64,000 nucleotides of DNA from Synechococcus sp. BIOS-E4-1 (GTDB taxonomy: Bacteria > Cyanobacteriota > Cyanobacteriia > PCC-6307 > Cyanobiaceae): the NCBI RefSeq assembly GCF_014279995.1, contig NZ_CP047935.1, positions 3,245,494 through 3,309,493 on the forward strand, read 5' to 3'. A model generated the notes under the pieces. It was not told the origin of the DNA. It saw only the letters and a list, made by a program, of their open reading frames with translations, and searched no databases. The translations under genes and the position numbers were made by a program. Shown here piece by piece: positions 814 to 1,079 of the stretch (positions within the stretch are counted from its first letter, which is position 1; every line of letters begins with the position of its first letter).

Positions 814-827
814 GTAGTCACAGCTAC
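814..827 (+). promoter_or_regulatory. NtcA box, perfect GTA-N8-TAC
   Basis: The sequence GTAgtcacagcTAC matches the cyanobacterial nitrogen regulator NtcA consensus GTA-N8-TAC at all six fixed positions. It ends four bases before the riboswitch-like RNA and 84 bases before the pirA-like ATG. Activating NtcA sites normally lie about 22 bases upstream of the -10 box, but that would put the -10 inside the RNA structure. The position therefore fits repression by NtcA over the core promoter, as is known for the gif genes. The repression reading is inference. Confidence 0.7.
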
Positions 828-830
828 ACA

Positions 831-892
831 TCGTTCACTTCATCCTTGAATGAAGCGCAGTACGACTCAGGCCATGGAACGGGGACCTGAGC
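831..892 (+). ncRNA. Glutamine-riboswitch-like leader (glnA/downstream-peptide type)
   Basis: The leader of the pirA-like gene can form a closing helix P1 between CGTTC (832-836) and GAACG (877-881). A six-pair hairpin CTTCAT/ATGAAG (838-843 with 850-855) lies inside it, followed by CGCAGTACG, which resembles the conserved CGGAAGUAGG of the glnA and downstream-peptide RNA families. The 3' GGAACG also matches those families. A competing six-pair stem CTCAGG/CCTGAG (866-871 with 886-891) would exclude P1. Family consensus was recalled, not searched, and some conserved positions differ, so this is a strong candidate rather than a proven riboswitch. Confidence 0.55.
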
Positions 893-911
893 TTGCTTCG
901 GAGAACCGATC

Positions 912-1079
912 ATGAGCGCACTTCTCTATCGCGGTCACACCTACAATCAGCACAAAGATTTTGTAAAAAAGCCAACTGTTCAACTCACCTATCGCAGGCA
1001 GACTTATCGGGCACGTCAGGCAGAGGCTCGCCCGATTGTGGTCGAGCTGAAATATCGGGGTGTAGCTTACAGCCACTGA
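912..1079 (+). CDS. pirA: PirA-like small PII-interacting regulator (DUF4278)
   Basis: Protein of 55 residues with three spaced copies of the DUF4278 signature: LLYRGHTY near the start, LTYRRQTY in the middle and LKYRGVAY at the end. In Synechocystis the DUF4278 protein PirA binds the PII signal protein and limits flux into arginine synthesis. It is made when nitrogen becomes sufficient. The ATG at 912 has CGGAG eight bases upstream. Upstream lie a perfect NtcA box and a glutamine-riboswitch-like RNA, which is the arrangement expected for this role. The PirA name rests on domain, size and leader; other small DUF4278 proteins exist, so orthology is probable but not proven. Confidence 0.65.
   Translation: MSALLYRGHTYNQHKDFVKKPTVQLTYRRQTYRARQAEARPIVVELKYRGVAYSH

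What the first reader, a model, noticed from the sequence alone, without database searches (positions are those of the whole stretch)
866..891. Mutually exclusive helix in the pirA leader
CTCAGG (866-871) can pair with CCTGAG (886-891), enclosing GAACG (877-881), which is also the 3' arm of the ligand-type helix P1. The two folds compete, which is what an expression platform needs. No U-tract follows, so control might be at translation or stability rather than termination.
Basis: seen in the sequence. Interest (0 to 1): 0.5.

Follow-up and report, generated by a model that had tools for sequence, protein, structure and literature searches.

The report
Known glutamine-II riboswitch, helix P2
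The paired hexamers are one helix of an already described glutamine-sensing RNA switch in front of a tiny cyanobacterial protein gene, and they fold together with, not against, the neighbouring helix.

Summary
The hexamers are real: CTCAGG 866-871 can pair with CCTGAG 886-891 around GAACG 877-881. But they are not one of two competing folds. Window 829-891 is a full-length match to Rfam RF01704, the Glutamine-II riboswitch aptamer (70.3 bits). PK and P2 share no nucleotide and stack on each other in the published structure. In 87 diverse copies PK is paired in 100% and P2 in 94.1% of cells, with 136 compensatory P2 cells against 34.5 in shuffles. So this is the aptamer, not the expression platform. 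Control is most likely an ON switch at translation, as published for the class; the ATG lies 20 nt after P2 and no terminator-like site lies between. The true competing fold is unidentified. A candidate, the PK 5' strand pairing with GAAC beside the Shine-Dalgarno sequence, is enriched as a motif but not supported by folding energies. The name pirA is doubtful: the product is a 55-aa DUF4278 protein.

The parts
814..827 (+). NtcA-type palindrome GTA-N8-TAC just upstream of the aptamer
   Evidence: Sequence; the same pattern lies within 45 nt upstream of PK in 184 of 214 copies and in 0 of 82 background upstream stretches of 40 nt. NtcA identity rests on the recalled consensus only.
829..891 (+). 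Glutamine-II riboswitch aptamer
   Evidence: Rfam RF01704, 70.3 bits against a gathering score of 33, positions 1-60 of 60
832..836 (+).
   Evidence: Pairs with 877-881; all 5 pairs in 87 of 87 aligned rows, double changes in 12 cells; PK helix of Huang 2019
838..855 (+). P1 hairpin, CUUCA 838-842 with UGAAG 851-855
   Evidence: 96.0% of cells paired; each of the 5 pairs has changes on both sides
856..860 (+). Linking strand; C858 pairs with G882
   Evidence: C-G in 87 of 87 rows; C19:G41 of the crystal
866..871 (+). P2 5' strand CUCAGG (first half of the finding)
   Evidence: the same hexamer pair was used for P2 in the published homology model
877..881 (+). PK 3' strand GAACG
886..891 (+). 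P2 3' strand CCUGAG (second half of the finding)
900..903 (+). Likely Shine-Dalgarno sequence GGAG
   Evidence: Sequence, 8 nt before the ATG
903..906 (+). GAAC overlapping the Shine-Dalgarno sequence; candidate alternative partner of the PK 5' strand
   Evidence: GAAC in the P2-to-ATG spacer of 60 of 126 distinct CGTTC-class leaders against 3 of 82 background upstream 22-mers; not supported by folding energies
912..1079 (+).
   Evidence: ORF; Pfam PF14105, 44.5 bits against a cut-off of 25.3; no NCBIfam match

Best explanation
866-871/886-891 is helix P2 of a glutamine-II riboswitch aptamer (829-891). P1, PK and P2 stack into one column and glutamine binds in the PK groove (shown for the class, PMC6698751). 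With glutamine bound, PK is stabilised and translation of the small DUF4278 protein starting at 912 rises (ON switch: shown for a Prochlorococcus member with a reporter, inferred here). The alternative fold that hides the ribosome binding site without glutamine is not P2 and has not been identified; most likely it uses the PK strands, in line with the proposal in the structure paper. An NtcA-type box next to the aptamer probably adds repression under nitrogen starvation (inferred).
For: RF01704 full-length match. Huang 2019 built P2 of its homology model from cucagg/ccugag, the same letters as here, and describes coaxial P1-PK-P2, with P1 and P2 stems fully formed and PK weakly reactive without glutamine and protected with it. 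87 diverse copies: PK 100%, P1 96.0%, P2 94.1% of cells paired; 267 cells changed on both sides against 68.2 shuffled, 0 of 500 shuffles as high; sliding the partners by one column drops pairing from 96.7% to about 50%. P2 alone: 136 double-changed cells against 34.5. RNAalifold on the same rows predicts P1 and P2 by itself (it cannot show PK). 215 of 215 copies carry an exact PK of one of three types together with at least 5 of 6 P2 pairs. P2-to-ATG distance 15-22 nt in 208 of 211 leaders, starts chosen by my rule. No terminator-like site in the leader.
Against: Single-sequence folding of 820-960 is no more stable than shuffles (z -0.42, 66 of 200 shuffles at least as good), though that model cannot form the pseudoknot. 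One of the covariation measures does not discriminate for P2 (pairs with a change on both sides: 6 against 4.9, 140 of 500 shuffles as high). P2 is unchanged in the five closest held leaders. The copies are related, so counts are not independent. Ligand binding and switching of this copy are untested.
Confidence: 0.97

Rival explanations
1. One reading: P2 and PK are two competing folds, and the choice between them is the expression platform.
For: The helices cross, so a folding program limited to nested pairs cannot show both; one search shows P2 without PK.
Against: They share no nucleotide; both are kept together in 215 of 215 copies and in the crystal; the structure paper describes P2 as fully formed while PK responds to ligand.
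Confidence: 0.02
2. Decoy model of the true platform: without glutamine the PK 5' strand (GUUC 833-836) pairs with GAAC 903-906 at the Shine-Dalgarno sequence and blocks the ribosome; glutamine pulls the strand into PK and frees the site.
For: GAAC in the spacer of 60 of 126 distinct CGTTC-class leaders against 3 of 82 background. In the CGTTG class 0 of 11 have GAAC and 6 of 11 have TCAAC or TCAGC, which fits the changed strand, against 1 of 126 in the CGTTC class; two CGTTG protein groups (7 leaders) have duplex medians of -10.5 and -10.8 against -5.0 and -5.6 shuffled. Agrees with the published idea that PK competes with a structure hiding the ribosome site.
Against: Ease of opening the site gained by forming PK is 0.08 kcal/mol on average over 126 leaders against 0.0 for 180 grafted background sites. 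The Shine-Dalgarno sequence pairs with the PK 5' strand with probability 0.043 against 0.015. Over 138 leaders duplex energy beats shuffles at P<=0.05 in only 12%, and background sites pair better with the consensus 5' arm than the leaders do (-6.47 against -5.01). Swapping strands between classes changes the mean energy by only about 0.5, and the CGTCC strand pairs worse with its own spacers (-2.33) than with others (-4.85, -3.85). The looser motif GAAC or GGAC contrasts less: 80 of 126 against 15 of 82. 0 of 3 CGTCC leaders and the Prochlorococcus-like leaders lack GAAC. The leaders are related.
Confidence: 0.25
3. No dedicated platform: the ribosome binds better next to a rigid, stacked aptamer, or mRNA stability changes.
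For: No region of the aptamer stands out as partner of the Shine-Dalgarno sequence in 126 leaders; the distance to P2 is tight.
Against: The enriched spacer motif suggests a sequence-specific role for the spacer.
Confidence: 0.3

Closest known systems
Glutamine-II riboswitch (Rfam RF01704, Downstream-peptide motif; PDB 6QN3; PMC6698751)
   Same: Full-length match, P1-PK-P2 layout, linking-strand pair C858:G882, short gene downstream; the P2 letters equal those of the published homology model
   Different: No difference found in the aptamer; spacer and ribosome site are this leader's own.
Glutamine-I riboswitch (Rfam RF01739, glnA motif)
   Same: Same ligand and a partly shared arrangement according to the papers seen
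   Different: Three-way junction instead of the pseudoknot layout. A copy below cut-off sits elsewhere in the same genome (28.9 bits, gathering 35).
PirA (Ssr0692) of Synechocystis, PMC8092223
   Same: Small protein of similar length (51 against 55 aa), NtcA-type control
   Different: The paper reports PirA absent from marine picocyanobacteria and its main text does not hold the term DUF4278; the PirA sequence was not at hand, so none was compared.

Membership tests
Glutamine-II riboswitch | Covariance model score above the gathering cut-off over the whole model | tested here: met
   70.3 against 33 bits, positions 1-60 of 60
Glutamine-II riboswitch | PK helix of five pairs plus the linking-strand C-G pair | tested here: met
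   832-836 with 877-881, C858 with G882
Glutamine-II riboswitch | P1 and P2 stems with covariation | tested here: met
Glutamine-II riboswitch | Place upstream of a short ORF | tested here: met
   55-aa ORF, ATG 20 nt after P2; the transcript start is not known
Glutamine-II riboswitch | Binds L-glutamine and switches expression on | not testable with these tools
   Published for other members
PirA | Orthology to Ssr0692 and binding of PII | tested here: inconclusive
   DUF4278 match, no NCBIfam hit; reference sequence not at hand; the paper reports absence from marine picocyanobacteria

The most novel reading that the evidence does not exclude
The unidentified expression platform of glutamine-II riboswitches is a decoy: a copy of the PK 3' strand (GAAC or GGAC, or TCAAC/TCAGC where the PK letters differ) overlaps the Shine-Dalgarno sequence and captures the PK 5' strand when glutamine is absent.
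Probability: 0.22. Interest if true: 0.4.

Novelty: already known. Interest (0 to 1): 0.1.

Why it matters
It removes a false lead: crossing helices are not necessarily competing helices, and this pair is part of the published ligand-binding pseudoknot. Still open for the class, as far as the papers I could see, is how glutamine binding reaches the ribosome site; the leaders gathered here give one testable candidate and a negative result from folding energies.

Tried and rejected
Competition between P2 and PK: rejected.

Transcription terminator: none found between aptamer and gene by a simple consensus scan.

Decoy platform: motif counts positive, energy tests mostly negative. The 82 background genes were required to hold a 4-letter Shine-Dalgarno core and the leaders were not, which by itself makes background sites pair better with a CACCUC-like arm; their starts follow my own rule, not annotation. 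Leader spacers and background windows differ a little in length. Energies use nested folds, and the bound state is imitated by forbidding pairing of the PK strands, which is crude. The strand swap used an unseeded random sample.

What was sampled: listings were capped ('more matches are not listed'), so the 215 copies held are part of all matches and lean to the higher scores. Rows dropped: 4 of 215 leaders had no start by my rule (L061, L101, L103, L161); 1 of 215 was cut short before alignment, and of the other 214 rows with N or with a similarity score of 0.90 or more to one already taken were left out, giving 87; 14 of 140 distinct leaders had no Shine-Dalgarno core by my rule; 2 of 140 had too short a spacer. 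Several aligned rows have P2 shifted by one column and count as unpaired.

An earlier count gave the same idea without PK coordinates checked: it puts the PK 5' strand at 834-838; the right place is 832-836.

PDB search with the protein: no match up to E 1.

Papers: PMC6698751, parts 1 and 2 of 5 and passages; PMC8092223, PMC2864571, PMC6316151 and PMC7357161, passages only; the other papers listed, listing only. Klahn 2018 and Ames and Breaker 2011 are not held and were not seen, so whether either already names the alternative fold is unknown to me.

Full report
What is there. The window lies near the end of a single-contig genome of 3,314,220 bases (G000:C1:3245494-3309493). Rfam's Glutamine-II model matches 829-891 over its full length with 70.3 bits; it is the only Rfam match at or above a gathering score in the 64 kb. 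The real P1 is the hairpin 838-855.

Why the two helices do not exclude each other. They use different nucleotides. The crystal structure of the class has P1, PK and P2 stacked coaxially, the chain going up P2, through the pseudoknot loop, down PK and back into P2. The authors' homology model used cucagg/ccugag for P2, the same letters as this window. The same paper describes the P1 and P2 stems as fully formed, and PK as weakly reactive without glutamine and protected with it.

Comparative test. RF01704 was found in 51 of 386 genomes sampled across the phylum; all 51 are the window's own genome, genus or family. It was found in 31 of 31 genomes of the genus and in 33 of 34, 4 of 5 and 17 of 25 genomes of three related genera. 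The listings were capped; I held 215 copies. All 215 have an exact five-pair PK of one of three types, 200 CGTTC, 12 CGTTG and 3 CGTCC, and all 215 have 5 or 6 of 6 P2 pairs in the best register. On 87 of them, chosen for diversity, the joint structure pairs in 96.7% of cells against 80.0% shuffled, with 267 double changes against 68.2. P2 alone has 136 double changes against 34.5, and sliding it by one column drops pairing from 94.1% to 41-49%; the count of P2 pairs with any double change does not discriminate (6 against 4.9, 140 of 500 shuffles as high). RNAalifold finds P1 and P2 unprompted. Copies are related, so these counts are not independent events. In the five held leaders whose protein is at least 65% identical to this one, P2 is unchanged.

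How it works. For the class, a reporter fusion showed an ON switch, and closeness to the start codon suggested control of translation. Here the ATG begins 20 nt after P2; by my start rule the distance is 15-22 nt in 208 of 211 leaders; and there is no terminator-like site before the gene. The structure paper proposes that PK competes with an unnamed fold that hides the ribosome site. I looked for that fold. The spacer often carries GAAC (60 of 126 distinct CGTTC leaders; 3 of 82 background sites), complementary to the PK 5' strand, and 6 of 11 CGTTG leaders carry TCAAC or TCAGC instead, with strong duplexes in 7 of them by group. Against it: in a nested energy model forming PK does not free the site beyond background (mean 0.08 against 0.0 kcal/mol; this window 0.54, where 23% of background exceeds 0.5); no region of the aptamer is a general partner; duplex energies are only slightly better than shuffles (-4.92 against -3.88) while background sites pair more strongly with the consensus arm (-6.47 against -5.01); and strand swaps between PK types change little, with the CGTCC type going the wrong way. 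I keep it as a candidate only.

The gene. The 55-aa product is a DUF4278 protein. DUF4278 proteins behind this riboswitch are a published association, likened to the N-terminus of the inactivating factor IF17. The PirA paper reports no PirA in marine picocyanobacteria. I would not call the gene pirA.

Verdict. A correctly seen helix in a known riboswitch, with a wrong reading of its role. Ordinary; interest low.

Noticed in passing
814-827: NtcA-type GTA-N8-TAC box a few bases before the aptamer; the same pattern in 184 of 214 copies, 3-10 nt before PK in 178 of these, and in 0 of 82 background stretches. It fits double control by NtcA and glutamine.
   Followed up: partly
L236:560-922 (-) and 838-911 (-), same genome: A fourth DUF4278 gene of the genome has a glutamine-I aptamer match below cut-off at its start (28.9 bits, gathering 35), so both glutamine riboswitch classes may occur in one genome.
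   Followed up: partly
L004:1502-1557 (-) and L085, L087, L088, L139, L143-L146, L150, L153, L154: A divergent glutamine-II group with PK letters CGTTG/CAACG precedes small proteins starting MNTL or similar; some of those printed have a YRG motif near the C-terminus.
   Followed up: partly
L009, L010, L020-L024, L028, L029, L031: In these leaders the end of P2 and the bases at the Shine-Dalgarno sequence (TTAAGC ... GCTTAA) could form a hairpin around the ribosome site, a possible lineage-specific platform.
   Followed up: no
898-909: In the predicted fold of this leader TCGG-AGAA-CCGA forms a small hairpin over the Shine-Dalgarno sequence; the close relatives L040 and L130 do not keep it.
   Followed up: no
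7-744 and 1472-2947: Neighbouring genes: a class-I glutamine amidotransferase-like protein upstream and a circularly permuted ATP-grasp protein downstream.
   Followed up: no
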